Below are positions 15,154 through 48,206 of a stretch of DNA of 52,861 bases, piece by piece. The DNA lies in IMG/VR virus record IMGVR_UViG_3300033149_002181, positions 1-52,861 of that record; one strand, 5' to 3'. The notes under the pieces were generated by a model, which saw nothing but the letters and a program-made list of their open reading frames with translations, made no database searches and was not told the origin of the DNA. Source of the stretch: a virus. The first letter of the stretch is position 1. Each line of letters opens with the position of its first letter. The translations under genes were made by a program, and so were the position numbers.

Positions 15154-18100
15154 TTACGCTATTTGGATGTCAATAAACTCCACCTCCGGTAACTTTGGTT
15201 TGTCAATTGAGGTCCTCACGCCAAAACCACCAACAGAATAACTTGTTAGCCTTCTTTCTTCGACCTCTTTCCATAATCCATCGGCCTGAATTTTACTGCC
15301 GAGAATCCATGCCCCGGAATGGAATATCTCTCCGCCGCACTTAACCCTGTACGCCCTATGTGGCTTCCCTTCCATCGCCTTCTGCCAGTCATCATATGAG
15401 GGGTACGGGAATAGATAACTCTCGACAGGCACAGCATCGGCCTTCTTATGATGTCGATAGCCTAACAAACGAGATTTGATCAGCCAATTATGTGCCACCT
15501 GCTCAACATCTGCTGGACTTACCCAATCGTCCTGGGAATCAACTTGATAGGGATCCAACGCTACACCATACACAATTCGTCGGGGCTGATCGATTTTAAT
15601 GATCGGAGCCTGGTACTCTTTAGCAATTTTCGCTTTTGCCACATCAATTTTCTGTACGGGCTTACCTGGTTCATCAGCCCAAAGTAACCATTTTTGACCT
15701 TTCTCTTTTAGTTCGCTTATGACATCAGCGAGTTTGTGCGTTTTTGTATATGGTTCCTGCGATTCTGGCCGGTTTACTAACCATACTCTTCGCCCCTGTC
15801 CCAACGGAGCATATTGTATAAGTAAACGGCCTTTCAAGTGTTTGCCGTTCAAAAAAAGTTCACGTCCGTGTTCCCGGGCAAAAGAAAACTTGTACTCGCC
15901 ACCGTCAAGTTTAAAAAACTTTGAATAAGTTTTGCTCGTAGACCCGGGGCCTCCGGGTTCAGAAATATACGGACCTTTATCTGTAATGGTTATCCACCTA
16001 ACAGGTTGGAACAGTTTGAACTGGCCTTGTAGACTGTCATCAGGCGGTAATTCAAGCAGACGACTTCCGTACTCCGTCTTACGGATGTCTTCGGTATCGC
16101 CCTCAAAGACTGAGAACCCCCAAGCTGTCTCATCGTCTATCTGGAAGCGCAGGTCGCCGTGGACACTATGGTTGGTTTTCAATAGCTCTTCGTGGCTAAG
16201 TTTGGTTTCTTCCTCGCTCAGCCCGCGCCAGTGCATCTGATAAACCCATCTGCCTCGTCCAGATTTCGGGTACATGTTGTGCCATTCTTCTTCATACAAC
16301 TTCTCCGCTATTTCAGCCCGAGTGTCGCCTTCCTCGCCTAAACGATCAGCTTTTTCCACCTGTTCTAGTGCACGTTTAATTTGCTTTAGCTTCCTCGCTA
16401 CCTCCCCGCTGTCCCCGAACCGCCTAACCGCCATCGGGTGAGGCAAAACAAAATCCGCTCTTTCACCTAGAGCGGACTTAGCGGTCTGACCTAACGCAAC
16501 TATAATTTGCGGATTGGCTTTGTCTAGTTCGTTAAACAGCCAATCGCGCCATTTTTCTATTTCTTCTTTGCTTGGTTCGCGCACCCGACCTTTTTCATCG
16601 GTCAGGAACTGGGGAACTGCATTGGTGAGAAACACTTCATTAGGCTTGAGACCCAACGGTTTCAAATAAAGTTCTTTAAATGTTTCCCCGCTGGGGCCGG
16701 TAAACGGTTCCCCCCTAGCTGCCTCAACCCGGCCGGGAGAGGCACCTACAAAGACTAGTTTTGCGTTTTTAGGTCCCCGACTGGGAACTATGTCCTGCAT
16801 CGATTTCTGAAGCACCTGCCCGCGCTTCGCAACATCGATAGCTTGAGCAGCAGTGTAAGGTTCTTTTCGAGTATCATCCACATCAATTACACGAGCTCCA
16901 AGCCAAGCGAGAACTTTCTTCTGTTCGTCCGGGATAAGCTCCAGCACCTCGCACGTGATAATGTCGCCAACCTTGGCCTTAATGTTTGTAGAAAACGTCT
17001 TACCTAAATCAATGTACTTCTTGCCGTTTAGTTCCCGAACGTTGCGCCACTCCATACCTACGCTCGGCAGGAGACCGCCCCAATAGTTGTAGTCTCCAGC
17101 TTTCGTGCGCTGTACGTCAAGCACGATAACTTTCAGCTCAATAACTCGCTTTAGCTTGAACCACTCGTCGGTGGCCCCGCTCAGTTCGTATTTACCTCCG
17201 GCAGACTTCGCTACTAGCCCCTCGGAGCGGTCCTGGTCGAACGCCCAGCGAGCGGCCACCTTAGCTTCCTGTGGCGTCTTGCACCATTTCAAGGGAGAAA
17301 TAGTTAACAGCTTTCTGAGGTTCAGCGACTCCAATATCTTGCGCCTTTCCTTGAACGGTTTATCGCTCAAATCTTCTCCCCAGTACGGCACATCAAAGAC
17401 CGTCAAAATAGGCGTCTCGTTTTCAGCGAACTCTGGTTTCTCGCGGTTGAACTTCATTAGATCTGGCCTTGCCACCCGCTTACCGTCGCGCAGCATGCCC
17501 AAGTCGCAGTCTAGGATAAAGTCAGCGTTAAGCTTTTCCAAGACCGCTTTTATCTCGGGGAATTTGTGCAGTTGGTCTTTGCCATATTGCCCCTCAAACC
17601 AAAGCCGTAGCTGGCTGCCCTTTTTTTCGGCAATGCTCCTGAAACCATTATGCTTCGGCTCTACAGCTATCGGCCAGCGGTTTTTTGCCCACTCTAGCAG
17701 TTCGTCTATGGTGTAAGCTTCTGTGTATTCGGCCATGCTCGGTTTGGGCGGTACAAACTTCTCAAATGGCTCCAACCCCGCCTTGCTTACTGTCTCCGGC
17801 TTACGTAATATACCTCGGACATAAACCAAATCGTCATTCTGGATTTCCTCCAGCTTCTCAACCTCGAACTTCGGGCGGCCTTCAAGTAGGTTATCCTGCG
17901 TCCAAAAGACGAAGGTGGACTTATTCCAAAAGCTCTTGTGGTCGGGGTGGTTAAACGCGCCCTCTCCTTTCGTACTCGGCACTTCGAAGACAAACTTGCC
18001 GCCGGGCTTTAAAACCCGGTGGATTTCGACCATGATGTGCTCTTTATCCGCGAGATGCTCCAGGACGTGGTTTGCGCGTATTTCATCCGCGCTGTCGTCA

Positions 18101-18939
18101 GGATAGGGTATACCCTGCTCTAGGTCATATACTACATCAACCTGCGGGCCCGGTTCTTTATCGATTCCCGTATAGCCGTCGGGTTTAGAATCGCCACAGC
18201 CGAGATCTAGTTTAAGTGCGTCTCCTTTCACTACTTGGCGTCTCGGTTCCTCGCGCCGGAGAACTAGCGAGTAGCACGGTATGAAATCTGCATGGCTGCC
18301 TTGTGGCGAATCTATAAAATGGAGTATTCCTTTTTTCTCGGGGTCAAGCACCTTTCGCACCGGTAGCCAGACATTATCTGCATGGATCAGAAAGTTCTCA
18401 CCAGATTTATCCCTGTTTGCCCTGAATAGTACATCTATATCTTCCGGGTTTTCCTTGCCCACGGCTGCTGATCCCACAACAGAGACAAAGTTAGGAACAA
18501 CAACCACTTCCTGCGGCAGGCTTGCCAATTTCGTCTCTATACTCTGGGCTTTTTTCACGTCCTGGAGCTTCTTTGCTTCCTGCACCAGTTCACTGTTTTC
18601 GTCGTAGTCAAAGCCCCGGTGATCGAATTCCTCCATTACCCAGATGGCGGCATTGACAATCTCCTCCGCCGGTTCTTTACGTTTCTTGGCCGCACTATAC
18701 CACTGGTGCAGTCTAAGCCACGCTTGCCTTACCTCTTCATCCGGCGCCTCTTTTAGCTTATCAGGCCGTATTTCAGCCAGAGCCATTTTTTCTAAAAAAG
18801 ACGGTTCCTCCGGCTCGCGCCATCGGGCCTTACCACCAGCAGCGGGAAGAGCGGCCTGATGTATAGCGTTCCAGGCCCAGTCTGGAAGCAGCTCCTTTGC
18901 TTTTTCTAGAGCTGTCTCAAGGTATTCTTTGCTTGGCAT
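15154..18939 (-). CDS. Polyvalent multi-enzyme protein ending in an XkdF-type prohead protease
   Basis: One 1261-residue frame carries six recognisable parts. About 145-230: nucleotidyltransferase-like (GSAAVG at 156-161, D167 and D169). About 242-380: class I SAM methyltransferase (DLGCG at 245-249, HVLEHL, RVLKPGG). About 420-690: ATP-dependent nucleic acid ligase (Lys429 in EPKHNGFR, FDVPYWGED, EGLVAK at 573, WFKLKR at 593). About 715-850: family-4-like uracil-DNA glycosylase (GASPG at 732, PFTGPSG, TNAVPQF, late HP). About 895-1075: LigD-type 3'-phosphoesterase-like (HGDLRF at 927). About 1115-1245: XkdF-type protease (RIVYGVALDP, SPADVEQVAH). The ligase site is KHNG, not the usual KxDG. 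The protein is encoded between the MuF-like and scaffold genes. Polyvalent proteins of this kind are described in phages as cargo of virions. Packaging and self-cleavage here are inference. The N-terminal 140 residues are helical and unassigned. Confidence 0.8.
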   Translation of the reverse strand: MPSKEYLETALEKAKELLPDWAWNAIHQAALPAAGGKARWREPEEPSFLEKMALAEIRPDKLKEAPDEEVRQAWLRLHQWYSAAKKRKEPAEEIVNAAIWVMEEFDHRGFDYDENSELVQEAKKLQDVKKAQSIETKLASLPQEVVVVPNFVSVVGSAAVGKENPEDIDVLFRANRDKSGENFLIHADNVWLPVRKVLDPEKKGILHFIDSPQGSHADFIPCYSLVLRREEPRRQVVKGDALKLDLGCGDSKPDGYTGIDKEPGPQVDVVYDLEQGIPYPDDSADEIRANHVLEHLADKEHIMVEIHRVLKPGGKFVFEVPSTKGEGAFNHPDHKSFWNKSTFVFWTQDNLLEGRPKFEVEKLEEIQNDDLVYVRGILRKPETVSKAGLEPFEKFVPPKPSMAEYTEAYTIDELLEWAKNRWPIAVEPKHNGFRSIAEKKGSQLRLWFEGQYGKDQLHKFPEIKAVLEKLNADFILDCDLGMLRDGKRVARPDLMKFNREKPEFAENETPILTVFDVPYWGEDLSDKPFKERRKILESLNLRKLLTISPLKWCKTPQEAKVAARWAFDQDRSEGLVAKSAGGKYELSGATDEWFKLKRVIELKVIVLDVQRTKAGDYNYWGGLLPSVGMEWRNVRELNGKKYIDLGKTFSTNIKAKVGDIITCEVLELIPDEQKKVLAWLGARVIDVDDTRKEPYTAAQAIDVAKRGQVLQKSMQDIVPSRGPKNAKLVFVGASPGRVEAARGEPFTGPSGETFKELYLKPLGLKPNEVFLTNAVPQFLTDEKGRVREPSKEEIEKWRDWLFNELDKANPQIIVALGQTAKSALGERADFVLPHPMAVRRFGDSGEVARKLKQIKRALEQVEKADRLGEEGDTRAEIAEKLYEEEWHNMYPKSGRGRWVYQMHWRGLSEEETKLSHEELLKTNHSVHGDLRFQIDDETAWGFSVFEGDTEDIRKTEYGSRLLELPPDDSLQGQFKLFQPVRWITITDKGPYISEPGGPGSTSKTYSKFFKLDGGEYKFSFAREHGRELFLNGKHLKGRLLIQYAPLGQGRRVWLVNRPESQEPYTKTHKLADVISELKEKGQKWLLWADEPGKPVQKIDVAKAKIAKEYQAPIIKIDQPRRIVYGVALDPYQVDSQDDWVSPADVEQVAHNWLIKSRLLGYRHHKKADAVPVESYLFPYPSYDDWQKAMEGKPHRAYRVKCGGEIFHSGAWILGSKIQADGLWKEVEERRLTSYSVGGFGVRTSIDKPKLPEVEFIDIQIA

Positions 18940-21134: not shown

Positions 21135-22484
21135 TTATCGCCTCCAGCGGCTTTCACCGTCGATGCCAACAGGCGAGAGAATCGGCGTCTGCATGCCAGA
21201 CTTTACTGCCCAGCATGCTAATGCCAGACTCATCACACAGTCGTCATGCCGACCTTCCGGTGCTTCGGGCCGTACGTTCATTCCACGTCGTACCCGCCGG
21301 AAAAATCGAAGCTCATCCCTTATGGTTGTATTACTTGTCGGTAGAAGCAGCTTTTTTTGTTCGACCTGGATCATCAAGTTTGAAATAAGCTCCTCTCGGC
21401 TGCGTTGCGTGAATACAAACGGCACGCAGTCCTGTACCTGCTCCGCTACAGGATCGCCTACGCCCGTAGCATCAAGATAAACCTTAGCCGCATACTTTGA
21501 CTGCAGATTGTTCACTTGGGCCACAATATCACCGTAAAGCCTGCTGCGGTAGCGATACCACTCGACGATCCTGTATGGTGTCATTGTTATGTCCAATACT
21601 GTTATAACCGTGTAATCTTGATATTTTGCTAAATCCACACCGATGCTGTATACATGGCCTTGCTCCCGCGCGCCCTCAGGTCTATAATCTTCAAACACGT
21701 GCTGGAGAACTGACCAAGGAAAAACTATTGTATCGTCATCGATGAACTCCGCTAAGTACTCTACCCGGAAAGCTAACTCAGGAACTTCTTTGCGAATTCG
21801 TTCAACTTCTTCCAAATCCAGACGGGGGTTATCGAAAACCGTGGCATGAAAGCTTCGGTAGTAACCACTGGCATCATTTAACCCCTGTTGATAGAGCTGA
21901 TATATATATCCCTGGTTACCGTTAGGTGTGGTTTCAGCCCGGATTTTCCCTTTCCGATCTAGAACCATAGCCCTAATGACATCGTTATAAACTTTATCCT
22001 TTACGAATGCAGCTTCGGTAATGACAACTCCATCCGCACCTTTACCTCGGAGATAAACCCCGTCCCGGGCAGTAGACCGCGCCATAATCCGGCTCCCGTT
22101 GATAAGTTCAACTTTCGGAAAAGGAGACCACTTAAATTTTTTCCCCGGCACCAAAATGGAAAGCAGCGGGTTTTCCATCCGCTGCTCAAGCTCGCTAAAA
22201 TATATTTTCGCCTGATCCATACTGGGAGCCGTGATATACCAGCGCTGTTTTTGCTTAGTGGCGCATTCATGAAGTATATCCACCAAGGTAGTTAAAGTTT
22301 TACCGAAGCGTCGGCCAGCTACTTTTACTGAGACCTTGCCACCCAAGTTAACCGCCTTGGACTGTTTTTCTTCCAAAACCACGCCTAGAAACTTTTCAGC
22401 GAAATAAACTTTATCATTGCGACACCTTTTAAGCACATCTCTGGCCTTCCGTTGTTGCTCAACCGTCCATATCATCATCATCAT
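21135..22484 (-). CDS. terL: Terminase large subunit (TerL)
   Basis: The start chosen is the first of four consecutive ATG codons (22484). It overlaps the end of the small-subunit gene, and an upstream extension is antisense-like and unsupported. About 449 residues. The ATPase domain has a Walker A-type VAGRRFGKT near residue 55 and a Walker B-type GVVITEAAF. The nuclease domain has SIGVDLAKYQD, DATGVGDPV and HDDCVMSLALA, supplying metal-binding acids. It packs DNA through the portal and cuts it. Confidence 0.88.
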   Translation of the reverse strand: MMMMIWTVEQQRKARDVLKRCRNDKVYFAEKFLGVVLEEKQSKAVNLGGKVSVKVAGRRFGKTLTTLVDILHECATKQKQRWYITAPSMDQAKIYFSELEQRMENPLLSILVPGKKFKWSPFPKVELINGSRIMARSTARDGVYLRGKGADGVVITEAAFVKDKVYNDVIRAMVLDRKGKIRAETTPNGNQGYIYQLYQQGLNDASGYYRSFHATVFDNPRLDLEEVERIRKEVPELAFRVEYLAEFIDDDTIVFPWSVLQHVFEDYRPEGAREQGHVYSIGVDLAKYQDYTVITVLDITMTPYRIVEWYRYRSRLYGDIVAQVNNLQSKYAAKVYLDATGVGDPVAEQVQDCVPFVFTQRSREELISNLMIQVEQKKLLLPTSNTTIRDELRFFRRVRRGMNVRPEAPEGRHDDCVMSLALACWAVKSGMQTPILSPVGIDGESRWRR

Positions 22485-22965
22485 CCCAAAGTGATTGAAA
22501 AGCGTCGACCAAACGGGATTGCGGGTCATCACCGATAAGTTCTTGCCGTGTTCGCATTGCCTGGCGTATTTCGCTCTGCAACTTCTCCCGTAGCTGGACC
22601 AGTGCAAGTGGCGGATTTCTCCTCTCTTTAATGAGGTCTTTTAGCCAAGCTTGTGTTGCTCGACTAAGTTCATAGTTATCCGTTATAGTAGCATCCAATA
22701 TTTCAACGTCACTCAGCCTTTTCTTGACCTGCTGTTGCATTTGTTCCTGGCTCTTCCAGTACTGCTCCCTAACTTCAGCTTTAATGTCAAAATGTTCATT
22801 CATGTGTTTCCAGATGGACTGGTGGCTTATTTTTTCCCCATGATCTTCAAACAGCTTTACAGATGCGGCTCTGGGACTAAGACCTTCCTCTTTGCACCAT
22901 TTTTCTATTTCAGCCCGGCGCTGACTGTTGCATACCTTGCACCGGGAAGAATATCCAGTCGGCAC
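22459..22965 (-). CDS. terS: Terminase small subunit (TerS)
   Basis: GTG at 22965 is preferred: AGGAGGTGGC lies 6-8 bases upstream and the product (PTGYSSRCKVCNSQRRA) begins with the DNA-binding fold. A longer frame upstream would be translated through a simple tandem repeat (HEHKQ units) and has no good ribosome site. The 168-residue product carries CKVC, EGLSPRAASVKLFED and SHQSIWKHMNEHF, resembling the HTH N-terminus of TerS, then an oligomerisation helix (ATQAWLKDLIKERRN). It recognises the packaging site, perhaps the repeat just upstream. Confidence 0.72.
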   Translation of the reverse strand: MPTGYSSRCKVCNSQRRAEIEKWCKEEGLSPRAASVKLFEDHGEKISHQSIWKHMNEHFDIKAEVREQYWKSQEQMQQQVKKRLSDVEILDATITDNYELSRATQAWLKDLIKERRNPPLALVQLREKLQSEIRQAMRTRQELIGDDPQSRLVDAFQSLWDDDDDMDG

Positions 22966-22994
22966 ACCGGGCCACCTCCTTGTTCGTTGTTCGT

Positions 22995-23054
22995 GTTCGT
23001 GTTGTTTGTGTTCGTGTTGTTTGTGTTCGTGTTGTTTGTGTTCGTGTTGTTTGT
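22995..23054. repeat. Four perfect 15-bp tandem repeats upstream of terS
   Basis: The unit GTTCGTGTTGTTTGT occurs four times without any change (22995, 23010, 23025, 23040), with partial copies to about 22982 and 23065. The array ends about 20 bases before the TerS ribosome site. Small terminase subunits usually bind DNA near their own gene, so this is a candidate packaging (cos/pac) site. There are no spacers between units, so this is not a CRISPR array. Confidence 0.75.
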
Positions 23055-23174
23055 GTTCGTGTTCGATTGCCCAGCACGTTCTTGCCCAATAGAAAAACCC
23101 TGCCGTTATGACAGGATTGGAGTTTCGCGCCCCAAACATTGCCCGGAGCTTTGCCAGAACCTAAGACTCATCTT

Positions 23175-23246
23175 GTGATACGGGTCACGATACACCTCCG
23201 CGACAGTCACCTGTAACCGGGCAGTTAGGACTATGGCTCGTATCAC
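23175..23246 (-). other. tRNA-like unit A (degenerate?)
   Basis: A 72-base segment is closed by GTGATAC and GTATCAC, the same seven-base acceptor-like stem as the neighbouring unit. An internal stem (GTCGCG / CGTGAC with one G-U pair and a nine-base loop) sits where a T-arm would be. D-arm and anticodon arm are not canonical. It could be a decayed tRNA or another structured RNA. Strand is assigned only by analogy to unit B. Confidence 0.3.
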
Positions 23247-23330
23247 ATAATGGTCCCTTAACATTTTTTAGTTTCGGGGGTTTACTCACCTACCCACCAT
23301 TCGGTGTATCAGTGAAACCATTTTATTATA

Positions 23331-23462
23331 GTGATACGGGCAAGGATTTGCACCTTGCATGATAACGCAAACCACTTAGATAGGGGTCTAAGTCCCTTTG
23401 ACACATTCCTTAATGCGCTATCTAACCTCCACCAGCGTCTACCTATTCCGCCACCGTATCAC
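23331..23462 (-). tRNA. Atypical tRNA-Leu-like element
   Basis: On the minus strand the acceptor is GTGATACGG paired with CCGTATCAC, followed by TGGCGGAATAGGTAGACGC, an almost classical leucine tRNA D-arm. An anticodon-like GGGACTTAGACCCC suggests UAG. The T-arm is GCAAG / CTTGC with GTGCAAATC (TGCAAAT instead of TTCAAAT). Odd points: about 35 extra bases lie between the D-arm and anticodon arm, the T-loop is irregular and alternative stems (ACTTAGA / TCTAAGT, TTAGATAG / CTATCTAA) compete. It may be inactive or an unusual structured RNA. Confidence 0.45.
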
Positions 23463-23647
23463 CTTATACTGGTTCTCCTAACATTTTTCAGTTCTTGTTT
23501 AAAGCATACTGCATATCTTTTACCTAACAAAACCATCCAAGCATCTTTAAGTCGAATTTTTAATGAATTCCATATGATAGGTTTTGCTATATACCATTTA
23601 CCGTCTATTTCTACTTGGTTATCGACTAAAGTGTCAATTAAAATCAC
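23459..23647 (-). CDS. Small conserved phage protein
   Basis: GTG start at 23647 behind AGGGAGGAG. The 62-residue product (EIDGKWYIAKPI, then LKIRLKDAWMVLLGKRYAV) looks like a small phage protein seen in replication/late regions, with a Trp-Tyr core and a DAW...GK motif. It overlaps the end of the tRNA-like unit by only a few bases. No function assigned. Confidence 0.6.
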   Translation of the reverse strand: MILIDTLVDNQVEIDGKWYIAKPIIWNSLKIRLKDAWMVLLGKRYAVCFKQELKNVRRTSIR

Positions 23648-24231: not shown

Positions 24232-25002
24232 TACTGCTATTTCCTTTTAAAATATTTTTAAGCGGAGGAGTGGGGAGCTCCCTGTATGGAAAAACAGATA
24301 ACCTGATTTTTACCATCCTTTTCGGATAGCTCTCTCTGATACCACTATAGCACAGAAACATACCCTCTGTAGTATTGAATTTGTATGGAACGTGATTTTT
24401 TTAACAAAACATCGATACTTCGGGGAAAATAGAGATATTATGTATGCCCAGACATCCTCCCCTTTCCAACCAAAAACCGGTCGGCATTTCCATATTTCCT
24501 CCGTCTTTGAAAAATAAAACAATCCATATTTACCACTGTATTTTCGGCCTAAACTTTCCTCTCCTCGTAAACCAAATATTAAACAATCTATATCAAATTC
24601 GTTAATTGCTTTCTTTATACCGGCCATTAAATTATTTTTTAAAATTTCACGTTTGATATTACTTAACCCGCCTGCTTCCCGATATATTTCAAAAATTTCT
24701 TTCGGCGTTTTAACTCGATGATAATTCAATTTATACTTTTGCGCATAATTATCATACATTTCAACAGCTTCTTCTAAATCTCCGCCTTGACCCCGATCGA
24801 TATTTATAATCAATATATCCGGCTTAATCTGCCTTGCAATATCCACACAAACAAGACTATCTTTGCCAAAACTAAAACTAACTGCTGGATTTCGGCATGT
24901 TTTAATCGCTTGTTTAAGCGCATTTTGCGCTTCTTCCAAGCGGCGCTTAAATCTTGGTAATAACGCTGTCATAAAATACTGATCTTTTTGCCATTGTTCC
25001 AT
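24215..25002 (-). CDS. cysH: CysH-like PP-loop protein of type IV-B operon (frameshifted in this sequence)
   Basis: The protein belongs to the PAPS reductase/adenine nucleotide alpha-hydrolase superfamily: SFSFGKDS near residue 45, then IINIDRGQGGD and LIFGLRGEESLGRKY. As written, the reading frame ends at 24310 with an abnormal tail. If one A is added to the A7 run (T7 on the + strand, 24396-24402), the frame continues as NHVPYKFNTTEGMFLCYSG and IRESYPKRM, a typical C-terminus of this family, and stops at 24215. The gene would then encode about 262 residues. A gene of this type is the hallmark accessory of type IV-B CRISPR loci. Its reaction there is unknown. The break may be a sequencing error, real decay, or slippage. 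Start at 25002 overlaps the upstream membrane gene. Confidence 0.7.
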
Positions 25003-25871
25003 CTCCTATACCCCCAGACAGTGTAAAGAATCATCGGCATAACAATAAATATCCGCGCCGTCGCATACCATGTCCATATCTGCGTCGCTGTTTTAGTTGC
25101 AAATAATGGCCATGAAAATAATGCGGCAACGGATATAACAACTGCCAATATGTCACCAGATAGATCTTGCAATGCCGCAATACATGAATCGAGTGTCGAC
25201 GTTGCCACGGCTATGATTATAATCGCAAATAATATTTGTGAAATTGCGCCTTGAGATAGAAAGGCGAAAAATACCAGGCTTAAATATAGGCCAAAAGCCA
25301 AAGATGCCAAAAGCCACGGATTGACACCTTTAATCCTTTCTGCACGTTGAAATTGCTGGCCGTCGAGAAATGGCCCGGCCATCAATCCTATACAAGCAGA
25401 TACAACCCAGCTAACATTAACCGGCTGATAATTTAAAACATTAAGATTAAATTTGCCTGTCAAAATAACAAGCACCAATCCACCAACCATAGCTAAATAT
25501 TGCCATTGATCACTTTCAACAGAAAACTTAAATTTATATTTATATGTCAGAAGAAATATTATGGTCGCGACAGTAGTTGCCCATCCGTTGCCAATATAAG
25601 TTGCCATGATCCTAATATTAATCCATATACAAAATATTTGTATCCCAATCATAGCTAATTTGATAAATATACTATTCTTTAATTTGATATAACCCGGATA
25701 TTTTCTTACGAACGCCCCATAAATAAATAGTGATAAAATGTTACATACCGCCCATGGCAGAAAAGAATGTAAGCCCATAGTTTTTAAAATACTAAAGCTC
25801 ACGCCCAAACTAACTCCCCAGGCCCAGGAAGCGGCTGCACTAATACCTAATTTAAACTGTTTGATTTGCAT
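24969..25871 (-). CDS. Multi-pass membrane protein, SSS-symporter-like, inside the type IV-B operon
   Basis: The 300-residue product is almost entirely hydrophobic with about nine or ten predicted membrane spans. Two sequence cues recall solute:sodium symporters: GPFLDGQQFQRAER in the middle, resembling the GxxQxWQR loop, and STLDSCIAAL near residue 220, resembling the S-T-x-D-S sodium-site helix. Typical symporters are near 500 residues, so this is a reduced form. It overlaps csf3 by 20 bases and cysH by 34 bases, so the three are probably translated together. GGAGG precedes the ATG. Substrate and role are unknown. Confidence 0.65.
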   Translation of the reverse strand: MQIKQFKLGISAAASWAWGVSLGVSFSILKTMGLHSFLPWAVCNILSLFIYGAFVRKYPGYIKLKNSIFIKLAMIGIQIFCIWINIRIMATYIGNGWATTVATIIFLLTYKYKFKFSVESDQWQYLAMVGGLVLVILTGKFNLNVLNYQPVNVSWVVSACIGLMAGPFLDGQQFQRAERIKGVNPWLLASLAFGLYLSLVFFAFLSQGAISQILFAIIIIAVATSTLDSCIAALQDLSGDILAVVISVAALFSWPLFATKTATQIWTWYATARIFIVMPMILYTVWGYRRWNNGKKISIL

Positions 25872-26520
25872 TGCATGCTAACCTCCGATCGTTTGGTATT
25901 AATACTCTCGTCCACTGCCACGCAAGCCAATATGGTGAACGAATACCCATTTCAACATCTCCGTTTTCATCGGGAATGGCCCGGAGGTAAGAAAGATCCT
26001 CCGGCCACTCCCCGACTGTCCAACGTACCACTCGTCCAAACCCCTGGCTACGTTTTTTACCGATGTGAGTCACGTATTTTAGCAATATTTCTATTTTGTT
26101 TTTTTCTCCTACTGCATACCATTCCAGCTTTGGCATAAGATATGTCACCAGCGGCATTCGATAGTTTTTATATTGACCTGACTTAACATTGACCTTTCCG
26201 CGTTTTTTGCCGAAGTCAATGTATTTCTGCGCGTCATCAAAATCCAATCTTTTATGCCAGTGCACTATCTCTTCGCGTTGCGGTTTTCCGCAGGCAAACG
26301 AACAAGCCCAATACCAGTCATCATCTTCGCCTCGTTTTTCAAGCGGTAAATCAGGGACTATTAAATTTTCCGGCATAATACTGCTTTGAGAAGCAATCAT
26401 AGCTTCAGGGTGATTCAATCTAATCCAAACCTCAGCCAGAATTGAGTCGAGAGGCAGAAAAAGATCATATGTTGCTATTTTCCCAGTCTGCATATATGCA
26501 GTAATTTTCAGTGGTTGCAT
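25852..26520 (-). CDS. csf3: Csf3 (Cas5-like) of type IV-B CRISPR system
   Basis: 222 residues from the ATG at 26520, the one correctly spaced after AGGAGG. The upstream ATG at 26526 overlaps that site. The product begins QPLKITAYMQTGKIA and ends with a typical Cas5/RAMP arrangement, including LLKYVTHIGKKRSQGFGRV, a glycine-rich loop common in RAMP proteins, preceded by WYAVGEKNKIEILL. It should cap the RNA-bound filament. Its start overlaps csf2's stop, showing translation coupling. Family assignment rests on motifs and synteny. Confidence 0.78.
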   Translation of the reverse strand: MQPLKITAYMQTGKIATYDLFLPLDSILAEVWIRLNHPEAMIASQSSIMPENLIVPDLPLEKRGEDDDWYWACSFACGKPQREEIVHWHKRLDFDDAQKYIDFGKKRGKVNVKSGQYKNYRMPLVTYLMPKLEWYAVGEKNKIEILLKYVTHIGKKRSQGFGRVVRWTVGEWPEDLSYLRAIPDENGDVEMGIRSPYWLAWQWTRVLIPNDRRLACNANQTV

Positions 26521-26522
26521 AT

Positions 26523-27506
26523 TCATCCTCCTATGGCGCGAATTAACGAGTCTCGTTTTTCCTCCAGATACCCAGCGTATCGGTTGAGAAACTCATCATA
26601 TTTCACCTTCGCGTCCTTCGCCGATTCAGCGAGAAAACATTTTCCGTCAGCCACACTCAAAAACGGTTCTTTTCCTTCGCCGAATAGCTCAATTTGCATA
26701 TCGACTTTTACTTTTCCCATTCCGATCCGTGCCTGTCCGCCGATGTATGGCTGCTTGGACCATTCAACGATTGCTGCCACGAAGGCGCCGAGCTCAATTT
26801 CGGTCATATCCTGAAAGACGGTTTCCTGCCATAACACAGAACCCCGGCATAATACCTCAATCATGTACCGCATCTGCTCTGGTCTATCTTTCTTCTTCTC
26901 TTTCTTCTCGTCTCCTGAGTCAAGCATCAAGGCGGCTTGTCCGCCGGTAAGTTTCGGAGTGTCATCGCTCTGGAGATATGGCCGGAGCAGATCATCTTTC
27001 GCATCGTCCTTCCGGCTATAACTAATTTCCGTTGTCATTTGCCGCCATGATAATTTCCGGTTCCCGGGAACCTCCTGTGGTATAATATGCGCCAGCTCTC
27101 TGCACACCGGCAACCCCTCACCAACAGCCAATTTCCCGGGCAACAGCATGTTTCCGACTCCACCGCCGAACACTGACAGGTGGGGTATTTGCTCCCTTAT
27201 CCGCCGTGCCTGATCAATATCGATTGACTGATCGCCACCGATTGCTCCACCTGAGAAAAACAGATAAAACATCTCAAGCGGAATCTGTAACGTTACACCG
27301 CTCCCTAATTTGTCCAGCATGTACCGGGCTCCCGAATCCCGCCACACGCCACGCAGAGCGTTCCCGGAGTATACGAATACCTGAGCGATATTTCCCTCCG
27401 CGTCCAGAATGTCCTGGGTTGACAAGTATGAATTCGGTCCGATACTCTCCCCAATATGCGATAAGGGACTTAATAGTGTAAAAACCGTTTCTATTCTACC
27501 GTTCAT
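26523..27506 (-). CDS. csf2: Csf2 (Cas7-like) backbone of type IV-B effector
   Basis: The ATG at 27506 is chosen because GGAGGAG lies eight bases upstream. A longer frame starts inside the preceding gene. The 327-residue product starts NGRIETVFTLLSPLSHIGES, with NSYLSTQ, FVYSGNALRGVWRD and a Gly loop (VFGGGVGNMLLPGKL), the pattern of Csf2. Cas7-type subunits polymerise along RNA. The start lies 11 bases inside the upstream small-subunit gene. A Lys/Asp-rich insertion around 214-224 (DEKKEKKKDR) is variable in the family. Confidence 0.85.
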   Translation of the reverse strand: MNGRIETVFTLLSPLSHIGESIGPNSYLSTQDILDAEGNIAQVFVYSGNALRGVWRDSGARYMLDKLGSGVTLQIPLEMFYLFFSGGAIGGDQSIDIDQARRIREQIPHLSVFGGGVGNMLLPGKLAVGEGLPVCRELAHIIPQEVPGNRKLSWRQMTTEISYSRKDDAKDDLLRPYLQSDDTPKLTGGQAALMLDSGDEKKEKKKDRPEQMRYMIEVLCRGSVLWQETVFQDMTEIELGAFVAAIVEWSKQPYIGGQARIGMGKVKVDMQIELFGEGKEPFLSVADGKCFLAESAKDAKVKYDEFLNRYAGYLEEKRDSLIRAIGG

Positions 27507-27978
27507 AAATAATCTCCTCCTCGTCTTCTTTGATAATTCCACTGACCTCAAGCGGTTTTTCTCTTTCAAGCCGGTCGCGGACTAACGCAATTACCCATGA
27601 TGTTTTTTGATATAAAATCTCCAGAATCGGTCCATGGTTCACTTGCTCCAGAATCCCAACCCAAAATTGCCGACGGCCTTTGTCTTGTTTTTGAATCAGC
27701 TCGCCGGTTTCTCTATCGACCGCCATTGTTATTGTTTCCGGGTCAGTCGCCATCCACTTGGGTTTCAGAGTAGAGCACATCAGCCGGGGTTTGAGTTTTT
27801 CGATGAAATCATGTAGATCTAACGCCCGCTTTGCGCTGCTCTTGCAAGCCCTCTCAATAATTCCCCACATGTCAGGGGTTACTTTAAAACGTTTCATGTC
27901 ACGGCTTCTGTAAATGCCGTATATAATTAAAGCCCCGATAGCCGCGTCTTCTGAATTCGTCTCGAATCCGTAATACAT
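27496..27978 (-). CDS. Probable Cas11-like small subunit of type IV-B system
   Basis: The ATG at 27978 overlaps the upstream stop (TGATG) and AGGAGGAAA precedes it. The 160-residue helical protein (MWGIIERACKSSAKRALDLH, FWVGILEQVNHGPILEILYQK) lacks known motifs. In type IV-B loci the small subunit gene sits between csf1 and csf2, and this one overlaps csf2 in the same operon, so a Cas11-like role is assigned mostly by synteny, size and helical character. Confidence 0.5.
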   Translation of the reverse strand: MYYGFETNSEDAAIGALIIYGIYRSRDMKRFKVTPDMWGIIERACKSSAKRALDLHDFIEKLKPRLMCSTLKPKWMATDPETITMAVDRETGELIQKQDKGRRQFWVGILEQVNHGPILEILYQKTSWVIALVRDRLEREKPLEVSGIIKEDEEEIIYER

Positions 27979-28394
27979 CAAATTTCCTCCTCTCGCCTTT
28001 TAATCTCATTTAAAAATCCCGTTTTACGTGCTATTTTAAGGATCCGCGCAGGATTCATACAAAAAGACAGCACTTTCAAAACCTGCTGTTTTTCTGGATC
28101 ACCGCGGATCGCTGCCCTCCGTCGACTAAAAAATATTTCCACCGCATTCTGGCTACGATTAAGCCTCCTGGCTATGTAATCATAACTTTTACCCATTGAG
28201 TATAACTTGATCGCAATTTCTTTTTCCAGCTCTGTCCATCGGCGGACGGGCCGGCGGATAATGCCTGCTTTTTTTAGGTATCGTTCAACAGTGGTATGAG
28301 AGATATTAAGCACTGAAGCTGTTTGACGGATAGTTTTCCCGCCTTGAATCAAAAGAATAATCTTCTGTCGTTTTGCGTCGCTTATTTTTTGCAT
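27978..28394 (-). CDS. Two-domain HTH regulator in the CRISPR operon
   Basis: The start at 28394 is preferred (GGAAGGGG upstream). An upstream in-frame ATG at 28448 has no site. The 138-residue product has two DNA-binding segments. The first (AKRQKIILLIQGGKTIRQTASVLNIS) resembles a resolvase-like or homeodomain-like HTH. The second (RRWTELEKEIAIKLYSMGKS, then IARRLNRSQNAVEI) resembles a SANT/Myb-like fold. It separates csf1 from the other subunit genes and overlaps the next start. It is a candidate operon or phage regulator. Confidence 0.6.
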   Translation of the reverse strand: MQKISDAKRQKIILLIQGGKTIRQTASVLNISHTTVERYLKKAGIIRRPVRRWTELEKEIAIKLYSMGKSYDYIARRLNRSQNAVEIFFSRRRAAIRGDPEKQQVLKVLSFCMNPARILKIARKTGFLNEIKRREEEI

Positions 28395-28506
28395 TTTGCG
28401 CCCCTTCCCGCTCTTTAATATTGTCACTATTGGTAAGTGAGATTCCAAGCCATATGCTTTGTAAATTGCCTAACTGCGTGCGGAGTCACAAAATATTTTC
28501 CGGCTA

Positions 28507-29187
28507 TCATTTTTCCTCCCGCTGCGCTATAAATAGCGCTAATTGAAATAAGCTGCTTCTCCGTACCGGCGCTATGGTTTTTTCAAGTTGTTCCCAACGT
28601 TCCAAACCGAATTCCCGGATTCGGTGGCTCTGATATTGTCCTGTTTCTATTTCCTTTTTTGTAAATACCTGATATAACGACTCAATGATATTAAGCAGGT
28701 CTTTAAATCGTCCAGGCACCACCATAACGTCATAATTATCCATCCTGACAGTAAATTTCTGATTCGACAAATTAACCTTCGCCTTGAAATGCAGCCACCT
28801 TTGCCCCGACTCCGCTACCGTCATTAAAAACGGTGGTTTGGGTGGTTGCAACAACGTTTCGCGAATTTGCAGTCGTGACAGGTGATATAACCCGTTCCCT
28901 GTCGCCAGCAGAGAATAATTTCTCAATTCCCTATACGACAGAGCCCATATGCAGTGTTCGCAAACCATCTCTGACCACGGGATTTTCGCCAGATCATGAT
29001 CGGTAAATGTCGGTTTAATGATTTTCTTTTTCGGGTGGCCTGTTTCAGGACGACATCCGCAAAGCCAACATTGCCCAGATAGTTTTCCCTCCGGCGCAGG
29101 ATCATAATGGACTGTTTTCCCACTCGGTGTTTCTATGTTGGGCTTCCGCATCGCTGCACAATACAAAAAATCAACAGAGCAAACCAT
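28507..29187 (-). CDS. csf1: Csf1-like (large-subunit-like) protein of type IV-B CRISPR system
   Basis: The 226-residue protein has the two-part zinc motif of Csf1: CWLCG at residues 39-43 and CEHC near 75, separated by a Lys-rich stretch and FTDHDLAKIP. The middle (PPKPPFLMTVAESGQRWLHF, then NLSNQKFTVRMDN) and the C-terminal helical part (RRSSLFQLALFI) follow the family pattern. GAGGTGGG precedes the ATG. It opens the operon. In known type IV systems Csf1 is the Cas8-like subunit. No Cas6, DinG, Cas1, Cas2 or array is visible here. Confidence 0.75.
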   Translation of the reverse strand: MVCSVDFLYCAAMRKPNIETPSGKTVHYDPAPEGKLSGQCWLCGCRPETGHPKKKIIKPTFTDHDLAKIPWSEMVCEHCIWALSYRELRNYSLLATGNGLYHLSRLQIRETLLQPPKPPFLMTVAESGQRWLHFKAKVNLSNQKFTVRMDNYDVMVVPGRFKDLLNIIESLYQVFTKKEIETGQYQSHRIREFGLERWEQLEKTIAPVRRSSLFQLALFIAQREEK

Positions 29188-47903: not shown

Positions 47904-47987
47904 ATTTTTCCCTCCTTTTTTTTATTTTGGCCTGCCTCATCAGCGGTGGGCGGCCAACCTCACCGGACGCCCTGAAGGGCGTTTCGG

Positions 47988-48206
47988 CTATTCTACGAAG
48001 TCCGTATCCCCGTCTGGCAACATACGGTATGTGCCAGACTTAATCCGGAAACTTCGATGATCGAAGTTTTCTGGACACCCGATGTGGAATTCGCCGTCGG
48101 TCTGGTCAAATTCCAAAATGTCTAATGGGGCTCCGCATTCGGGGCAGCGGAGATTTTCCAACCCTTCCGTGGAGCCATTCCGTTTGAAAATGACAGTGTA
48201 AATCAT
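47988..48206 (-). CDS. Small zinc-ribbon-like protein
   Basis: 72 residues. CPECGAPLD and a later GCPENFDH fit a zinc ribbon. It lies one base from the next gene. Role unknown. Confidence 0.5.
   Translation of the reverse strand: MIYTVIFKRNGSTEGLENLRCPECGAPLDILEFDQTDGEFHIGCPENFDHRSFRIKSGTYRMLPDGDTDFVE

What the first reader, a model, noticed from the sequence alone, without database searches (positions are those of the whole stretch)
23175..23462. Pair of atypical tRNA-like units upstream of terS sharing one acceptor stem
Two minus-strand segments are closed by GTGATAC/GTATCAC. Unit B has a classical tRNA-Leu D-arm, UAG-like anticodon arm and a T-arm, but 35 extra bases and odd loops. They might be decayed tRNAs, tRNA decoys, or structured RNAs for packaging or for the IV-B complex.
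Basis: partly seen in the sequence, partly recalled or inferred. Interest (0 to 1): 0.55.

Follow-up and report, generated by a model that had tools for sequence, protein, structure and literature searches.

The report
Phage tRNA-like RNA with swappable arm
A short stretch of this phage genome encodes an RNA built on the frame of a transfer RNA whose anticodon part is replaced by a large arm that differs between phages; it belongs to a widespread, apparently undescribed family and may be a natural version of the laboratory 'tRNA scaffold'.

Summary
Unit B (23331-23462, minus strand) is real and is not a decayed tRNA. It belongs to a large RNA family of phages and prophages, seen so far in Bacillota. 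A covariance model built without the window finds it at 73.1 bits, E 4.7e-17. The family has a 7-bp acceptor-like stem of free sequence, a tRNA-Leu D-arm, a 6-bp T-arm, and an arm of about 20-180 nt in place of the anticodon. Three helices covary strongly. D-loop nt 17 and T-loop nt 55 change together. Arms behave as cassettes: two Enterococcus phages share 97-98% identical flanks but unrelated arms; SPP1 and Grass share an arm but not flanks. Encoded CCA and a canonical anticodon arm are nearly always absent. Some copies follow late-transcription activators, others sit in tRNA clusters. Tests found no Ro60 partner, no Rfam match on unit B, and no general link to IV-B or to this terminase. Unit A is a partial duplicate, not a member. 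Best reading: a natural tRNA scaffold, cut from long transcripts by host tRNA-processing enzymes, that displays a variable effector RNA. The scaffold is shown; processing and function are inferred.

The parts
23331..23462 (-). Unit B: whole tRNA-like RNA (model hit 23333-23460; outer stem reaches 9 bp)
   Evidence: R1 73.1 bits, E 4.7e-17, window not in the model
23454..23462 (-). 5' strand of the acceptor-like stem (7-bp core 23454-23460, extended to 9 bp)
   Evidence: pairs with 23331-23339; the helix has changes on both sides at all 7 core pairs in 40 sequences
23435..23451 (-). D-arm GCGGAATAGGTAGACGC of tRNA-Leu type, preceded by TG (nt 8-9)
   Evidence: 2 of the 3 D-stem pairs have changes on both sides, the third never varies
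23361..23434 (-). Variable arm, 74 nt, in place of the anticodon arm; helix P3 = 23414-23422 with 23361-23369, next to the T-arm
   Evidence: MFE fold; a helix of 7 bp or more at this place in 44% of 112 elements against 18% with swapped tails
23340..23358 (-). T-arm: 6-bp stem, loop TGCAAAT (G at nt 55)
23331..23339 (-). 3' strand of the acceptor-like stem; no CCA follows
23175..23246 (-). Unit A: partial duplicate of leader and acceptor ends of B without D-arm or T-arm; not a family member
   Evidence: alignment score 36, shuffle maximum 28; not found by R1
23459..23647 (-). 62-aa ORF (phrog_21988, unknown function) whose stop codon overlaps the 5' end of unit B
22459..23139 (-). ORF downstream of the RNA, terS by position only
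   Evidence: no Pfam or PHROG match
21135..22607 (-). Terminase large subunit
   Evidence: Terminase_6N, phrog_2

Best explanation
Unit B is a natural 'tRNA scaffold': a phage non-coding RNA whose constant part copies the body and elbow of tRNA-Leu (acceptor-like stem, D-arm, T-arm) and whose anticodon arm is replaced by an exchangeable arm. Shown by sequence comparison: the fold, its conservation across unrelated phages, the near-total lack of an encoded CCA end and of an anticodon arm, and different arms within one constant scaffold and flank. Inferred: the RNA is transcribed within late-operon or tRNA-cluster transcripts, cut out at its ends by host RNase P and RNase Z that read the acceptor/T-arm/elbow, kept stable by the tRNA-like fold, and acts in trans through its arm on a host target. 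My best guess for the target is a host factor that binds or attacks tRNA or blocks phages, because arms diversify like parts in an arms race.
For: Covariation: 98.3% of 640 cells paired (shuffled 76.8), 141 cells with both sides changed (shuffled 35.7), lost when partners are slid. 97 non-redundant elements: acceptor pairs 94-99% at six positions, against 42-62% shuffled at five of them; the innermost is nearly invariant G-C, 97 against 95%. D/T-loop link: G55 with A17 in 199 of 199 distinct elements, U55 with G or C17 in 17 of 19. Arms: L004/L154 flanks 96.7 and 98.3% identical over 300 nt each, arms of 75 and 150 nt unrelated; 285 elements (218 distinct sequences) fall into 86 arm clusters. 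The converse, arm kept while 4-6 of 7 acceptor letters differ and flanks are at background: L153/L159, L105/L155, L062/L115, L095/L102. NCCA in 2 of 114; none in L020, L052, L061, L096, the loci with nine or more tRNAs nearly all of which encode CCA (38 of 40). Nearest upstream ORF co-oriented in 90 of 106, downstream in 72 of 103; no promoter enrichment (1 against 2 of 101). The engineered tRNA scaffold has the same layout (PMC3753655, passages).
Against: No transcript, processing or phenotype was seen. The acceptor-plus-T helix is 13 bp, not 12, and pairing often extends to an 8th pair (62%, shuffled 40%), so RNase P/Z cutting at tRNA positions is uncertain. Terminator-like sites follow 14 of 101 elements (8 upstream, 1 at random places), so some may end their own transcript. 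Arms show no complementarity to their own locus, so no target is known. A pseudoknot in the arm is only marginal. Relatedness of sequences and search patterns inflate the conservation figures.
Confidence: 0.55

Rival explanations
1. tRNA decoy: the body itself, not the arm, is the active part; it binds host enzymes that recognise tRNA (anticodon nucleases, acceptor-modifying toxins, processing enzymes) and, lacking an anticodon, cannot be cut.
For: Elbow residues kept with no CCA and no anticodon arm. Short tRNA-like units of 39-63 nt without room for an anticodon arm lie near several elements, e.g. L016, whose homologues in L123 and L128 keep that arm. [quoted passage not shown]
Against: A pure decoy needs no variable arm of 20-180 nt, and does not explain arm swapping.
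Confidence: 0.2
2. Cis-acting leader of the late operon: the fold acts in the transcript as antiterminator or processing site for terminase and head genes.
For: Of 86 upstream ORFs scanned, 19, 15 and 7 match the regulators phrog_36, phrog_248 and phrog_2198 (overlapping tallies); some HNH and terminase genes lie downstream (up to 3 of 72 per family).
Against: Also in tRNA clusters of Herelleviridae; 22 of 114 lie within 500 nt of a tRNA, expected 9.7. Not found in A118, A500 or vB_ElaS_B1578 at the corresponding place.
Confidence: 0.15
3. Packaging signal or pRNA-like RNA.
For: In the window, Brochothrix BtpYZU01 and two records where it lies near a genome end, it is close to terminase genes or the genome terminus.
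Against: 0 of 24 TerL-relative records hold the T-arm core (fragments, exact core only); in SPP1 it lies between genes 9 and 11; it also lies in tRNA clusters.
Confidence: 0.03
4. Guide or partner RNA of the type IV-B Csf complex in the window.
For: Csf1, Csf2, Csf3 and Cas11 in the same contig; a IV-B complex was isolated with heterogeneous RNA and the RNA that Csf3 would recognise is unknown (PMC7937560, passages).
Against: 0 of 30 other RNA-carrying records have type IV Cas7.
Confidence: 0.03
5. Decaying tRNA-Leu without function.
For: The D-arm is of tRNA-Leu type, and true tRNA-Leu genes are weak hits of R1 (cyanophage genes called tRNA-Leu by ARAGORN score 36.6 and 43.6 bits).
Against: Compensatory changes and loop-loop covariation over many unrelated phages.
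Confidence: 0.02

Closest known systems
Engineered tRNA scaffold for recombinant RNA (PMC3753655, passages seen)
   Same: tRNA acceptor stem, D-arm and T-arm kept; anticodon stem-loop used as an insertion region for a foreign structured RNA
   Different: Man-made from a true tRNA. Here natural, no encoded CCA, 6-bp T-stem, arms differ between phages with one scaffold
tRNA-Leu (type II tRNA)
   Same: D-arm sequence, TG at nt 8-9, A14, A15, G18G19, T-loop with C56 and A58 (numbering by recall)
   Different: No anticodon arm, no encoded CCA, 13-bp acceptor/T helix, mostly G55 in the sets found; none of 114 elements called by ARAGORN
YrlA / bacterial Y RNA (RF02553)
   Same: tRNA-mimicking domain with D- and T-arms in a non-coding RNA
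   Different: No Ro60 in the window or in 30 carrying records; RF02553 has no match in the window; in YrlA the paired ends form a large stem that binds Rsr (PMC8394870, passages), here they are the acceptor-like stem itself
tmRNA
   Same: acceptor plus T-arm with the anticodon arm replaced by a long insert
   Different: Good D-stem here; no Rfam tmRNA match on unit B; a tmRNA lies beside the element in L004 as a separate gene
T4 species 1 RNA (rnaC)
   Same: Small stable phage RNA (annotation) with a T-arm in a tRNA cluster
   Different: Canonical UUCGAAU loop, no such D-arm; no R1 match on it

Membership tests
tRNA | anticodon arm (5-bp stem, 7-nt loop with U33) | tested here: not met
   window arm: none; 1 of 85 distinct arms next to the D-arm
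tRNA | NCCA 3' end, encoded or added | tested here: inconclusive
   encoded NCCA in 2 of 114, none in four loci where 38 of 40 tRNAs encode it; enzymatic addition cannot be tested here
tRNA | D-arm/T-arm elbow | tested here: met
   GG at nt 18-19 in 217 of 218 (elements were accepted with up to 4 changes in the D-arm); D- and T-stems covary
tRNA | called by a tRNA finder or Rfam tRNA model | tested here: not met
   ARAGORN: none in the window, 0 of 114 overlap a call; Rfam: no tRNA match on unit B
YrlA Y RNA | matches the Rfam YrlA model | tested here: not met
   no match in the window
YrlA Y RNA | Ro60/Rsr partner encoded nearby | tested here: not met
   0 of 1 window, 0 of 30 carrying records
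tmRNA | Rfam tmRNA match | tested here: not met
   no match on unit B
tmRNA | tag reading frame with resume codon | not tested
   no search made
type IV-B guide RNA | co-occurrence with Csf proteins | tested here: not met
   0 of 30 other carriers
family defined here (model R1) | acceptor, D and T helices and consensus, found by a model not containing the sequence | tested here: met
   73.1 bits, E 4.7e-17
engineered-type tRNA scaffold (as mechanism) | stable RNA released by host tRNA processing | not testable with these tools
   needs RNA from infected cells

The most novel reading that the evidence does not exclude
Phages of Bacillota evolved a natural RNA display system: a constant tRNA-Leu body, made and stabilised by host tRNA enzymes, on which structured effector arms are exchanged as cassettes between unrelated phages to counter changing host defences or seize host factors.
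Probability: 0.35. Interest if true: 0.9.

Novelty: new variant of a known kind. Interest (0 to 1): 0.72.

Why it matters
A conserved RNA present in a model phage, SPP1, carries no annotation there, is passed over by ARAGORN and matches no Rfam family where tested. Its constant frame with exchanged arms gives a testable system: the arm shared by SPP1 and the herellevirus Grass, both recorded on Bacillus subtilis, can be deleted or swapped. If arms counter defence, the family offers a large natural collection of effector RNAs; if the body is the decoy, it says which tRNA features host factors read. It also suggests how a tRNA can be turned into a carrier for other RNAs.

Tried and rejected
Y RNA: rejected by no Ro60 and no RF02553 match. 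T4 rnaC as relative: no D-arm match, no R1 match on it. Antisense arm against own locus: 82 elements, longest match mean 9.12 against 9.15 shuffled (only the held stretch of each locus). H-type pseudoknot in the arm: 87 elements, score 11.41 against 10.73 (best of 100 shuffles 11.42), 3% individually significant, not claimed. A short hairpin right after the D-arm: 4 bp or more 43% against 38% shuffled, 5 bp or more 21% against 13%, equal to the best of 200 shuffles; borderline, not claimed. A conserved partner gene: among the three nearest ORFs on each side the largest protein cluster spans 10 loci. Terminase relatives of the window: four motif hits look like chance hits downstream of the TerL start (read by eye, not tested).

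Host range: at E up to 10 the phage searches also listed non-Bacillota records (Synechococcus, Acinetobacter, Escherichia and others). Of three fetched, two Synechococcus hits are ordinary tRNA-Leu genes and one Escherichia hit (SUSP2) is an isolated T-arm-like hairpin with 13.4 bits over 17 model positions. The Acinetobacter rows listed fall under protein genes. The rest were not examined, so 'Bacillota' rests on the 22 titles and the phages named here; hosts of metagenomic contigs are unknown.

Bias to keep in mind: one search fixed CAT and AGGTGCAAATCCT and stopped at 120 rows, and one search also stopped at its limit, so T-loop conservation in those sets is partly imposed, the family is larger than counted, and G55 is not universal. 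D-loop nt 16-17, the acceptor and the outer T-stem pairs were free in those patterns, but scripts accepted D-arms only within 4 or 5 changes of the consensus, which has A17. Rows dropped: 27 of 138 hits lacked a D-arm within 260 nt (some carry one further off or more diverged, some are cut by the locus end, some are chance); duplicates by middle were removed; the U55/A17 exceptions L226 and L255 vanish under the redundancy filter, so one search is the count used. The 285 elements include the same place under two locus ids. Sequences are related, so the Fisher value (4e-14) overstates.

R1 does not separate family and tRNA-Leu cleanly at the low end: strong members score 59-88 bits, long-armed L154 47, L214 48.9, tRNA-Leu genes up to 43.6, the diverged A511 copy 35.6 (placed by its stem and position, inference).

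Literature: the listings in the held library showed no paper on this RNA; subscription papers and preprints are mostly not held. The SPP1 re-annotation (PMC6316719; abstract and passages) has no occurrence of 'tRNA' in its text. PMC9569102 and PMC11780869: passages only.

Full report
What is there. The finding covers two minus-strand units. Unit B (23331-23462) reads, 5' to 3', acceptor-like stem, TG, D-arm GCGGAATAGGTAGACGC, a 74-nt arm, T-arm GCAAGG-TGCAAAT-CCTTGC, acceptor 3' strand, no CCA. ARAGORN calls no tRNA in the window and Rfam 15 has no match on unit B's strand at gathering score or up to E 10 (two weak opposite-strand matches, far below their gathering scores). Unit A (23175-23246) shares the leader and acceptor ends with B but has no D-arm or T-arm and is not found by the model; I read it as a partial duplicate.

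Relatives. A blastn search of 50,697 phage records hit two short stretches, the D-arm and the T-arm, at a similar spacing in phages of Paenibacillus, Listeria, Enterococcus, Bacillus, Leuconostoc and others. Of the 20 of 44 records listed, 17 had no annotated feature under the match, 2 carry no annotation at all, and one (gp64 of B025) is a predicted ORF. In the later listings a few matches fall under hypothetical proteins, and the only RNA features seen under matches are tRNA-Leu genes of non-Bacillota phages. SPP1 has the element between genes 9 and 11. A pattern for the T-arm in IMG/VR stopped at 120 stretches; over all loci then held, 111 of 138 core hits had a D-arm within 260 nt upstream. 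A D-arm/T-arm pattern over 84,980 species genomes gave 22 stretches, all Bacillota by their titles (phylum by recall of the names). In a sample of 299 Bacillota genomes, 4, the centre included, had a match at E 1e-8 or better: an accessory, prophage-like spread.

Structure. In 97 non-redundant elements acceptor pairs form in 94-99% at the six inner positions (77% at the seventh); when 3' strands are dealt out anew, five of the six fall to 42-62% and the innermost, nearly always G-C, stays at 95%. In 40 sequences, without the window, three helices give 98.3% pairing, 12 of 16 pairs with changes on both sides and a covariation score of 0.617 against 0.174. The model R1 from this set scores unit B 73.1 bits. 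Strong members in ten host genomes score 59 to 88 bits; hits of tRNA size (79-86 nt) score 28-37 there, and two cyanophage genes that ARAGORN calls tRNA-Leu score 36.6 and 43.6. So tRNA-Leu is the nearest relative seen. The arm often has its own helix against the T-arm: 7 bp or more in 44% of 112 against 18% in swapped controls. Members with a canonical U55 loop exist; nt 17 of the D-loop is A with G55 (199 of 199 distinct) and G or C with U55 (17 of 19). This loop-loop covariation is what a tRNA elbow predicts.

What it has lost. Encoded NCCA follows the acceptor in 2 of 114. In L020, L052, L061 and L096, where 8 of 9, 12 of 12, 9 of 10 and 9 of 9 tRNAs encode CCA, the element has none. A canonical anticodon arm stands next to the D-arm in 1 of 85 distinct arms. 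Charging and decoding are therefore unlikely.

Arms are cassettes. Enterococcus phages vB_Edu_21C1 (L004) and EFDG1 (L154) share 96.7% and 98.3% identity over the 300 nt on each side and the same scaffold, but arms of 75 and 150 nt without similarity; R1 finds both. IMG/VR contigs L225 and L240 share 92% over 300 nt upstream and have unrelated arms. Six phage records, three of them Enterococcus, match the DNA upstream of the L225 element, with an ArpU-family gene in one and a 'transcriptional activator' in another; the match ends just before the element, and the one fetched (vB_ElaS_B1578, L362) has no R1 hit, so the RNA is dispensable at that place. Conversely four pairs (SPP1/Grass, L105/L155, L062/L115, L095/L102) keep the arm while acceptor and flanks differ. 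285 elements in 275 loci, 218 distinct, form 86 arm clusters.

Context. I scanned 86 of 106 nearest upstream ORFs (mainly the co-oriented ones; for the window the 62-aa ORF): 19 match phrog_36, 15 phrog_248 and 7 phrog_2198, all transcription regulators; tallies overlap. Of 103 nearest downstream ORFs I scanned 72: HNH and terminase families in up to 3 members each. 22 of 114 elements lie within 500 nt of a tRNA against 9.7 expected; 29 of 110 loci hold any tRNA or tmRNA. The nearest upstream ORF is co-oriented in 90 of 106 and the nearest downstream in 72 of 103. Promoter-like sites are not enriched upstream; terminator-like sites follow 14 of 101.

What it is not. No TROVE protein in the window or in 30 carriers: no Y RNA pair. 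No type IV Cas7 in 30 other carriers: not a IV-B guide in general. No exact T-arm core in 24 TerL-relative records, mostly fragments: not tied to this terminase.

Mechanism. [quoted passage not shown] I infer that host RNase P and RNase Z release the RNA from longer transcripts and that the arm acts in trans, most likely against host factors that restrict the phage. A body-as-decoy reading is the strongest rival. Neither processing nor target is shown.

Noticed in passing
window 24310-29187 (-): Type IV-B Csf set: Csf1/Cas8 28507-29187, Cas11 27496-27981, Csf2/Cas7 26523-27569, Csf3/Cas5 25852-26526, with a PAPS reductase (CysH-like) gene 24310-25002. No CRISPR array search was made.
   Followed up: partly
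window 47926-47989 (-): Type II hammerhead ribozyme, 51.4 bits, above Rfam's gathering score of 37.
   Followed up: no
L016:1152-1209, L156:2889-2947, L023:7492-7549, L137:7026-7068, L026:254-295, L127:882-925, L131:826-877, L021:4661-4699: Short tRNA-like units of 39-59 nt (others up to 63) with acceptor stem and canonical T-arm but no room for an anticodon arm, near elements of the family; homologues of the L016 unit in L123 and L128 keep the anticodon arm (no hits in the reversed control).
   Followed up: partly
L158:2392-2532 (Listeria phage A511): Diverged copy in which the D-loop GG motif and the T-loop C56 are both lost while the acceptor stem is kept.
   Followed up: no
L198:2197-2570 (A118) and L199:1641-2010 (A500): At the slot where vB_LmoS_188 carries the element, A118 and A500 have a different non-coding stretch after shared upstream DNA.
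   Followed up: no
L153:3549-3580 (SPP1): Small T-arm hairpin just downstream of the SPP1 element with a sub-threshold tmRNA match (13.8 bits).
   Followed up: no
L363:1503-1519 (Escherichia phage SUSP2): Isolated hairpin with loop TGCAAGT, like the family's T-arm, in a tRNA cluster, without a D-arm before it by R1; similar blast rows in other enterobacterial phages.
   Followed up: partly
window 15154-18939 (-): One 1261-aa ORF with methyltransferase, ATP-dependent DNA ligase, uracil-DNA glycosylase and XkdF-like protease domains.
   Followed up: no
window 22975-23070: Tandem repeats around GTTCGTGTTGTTT within the 5' part of the ORF taken as terS (seen).
   Followed up: no
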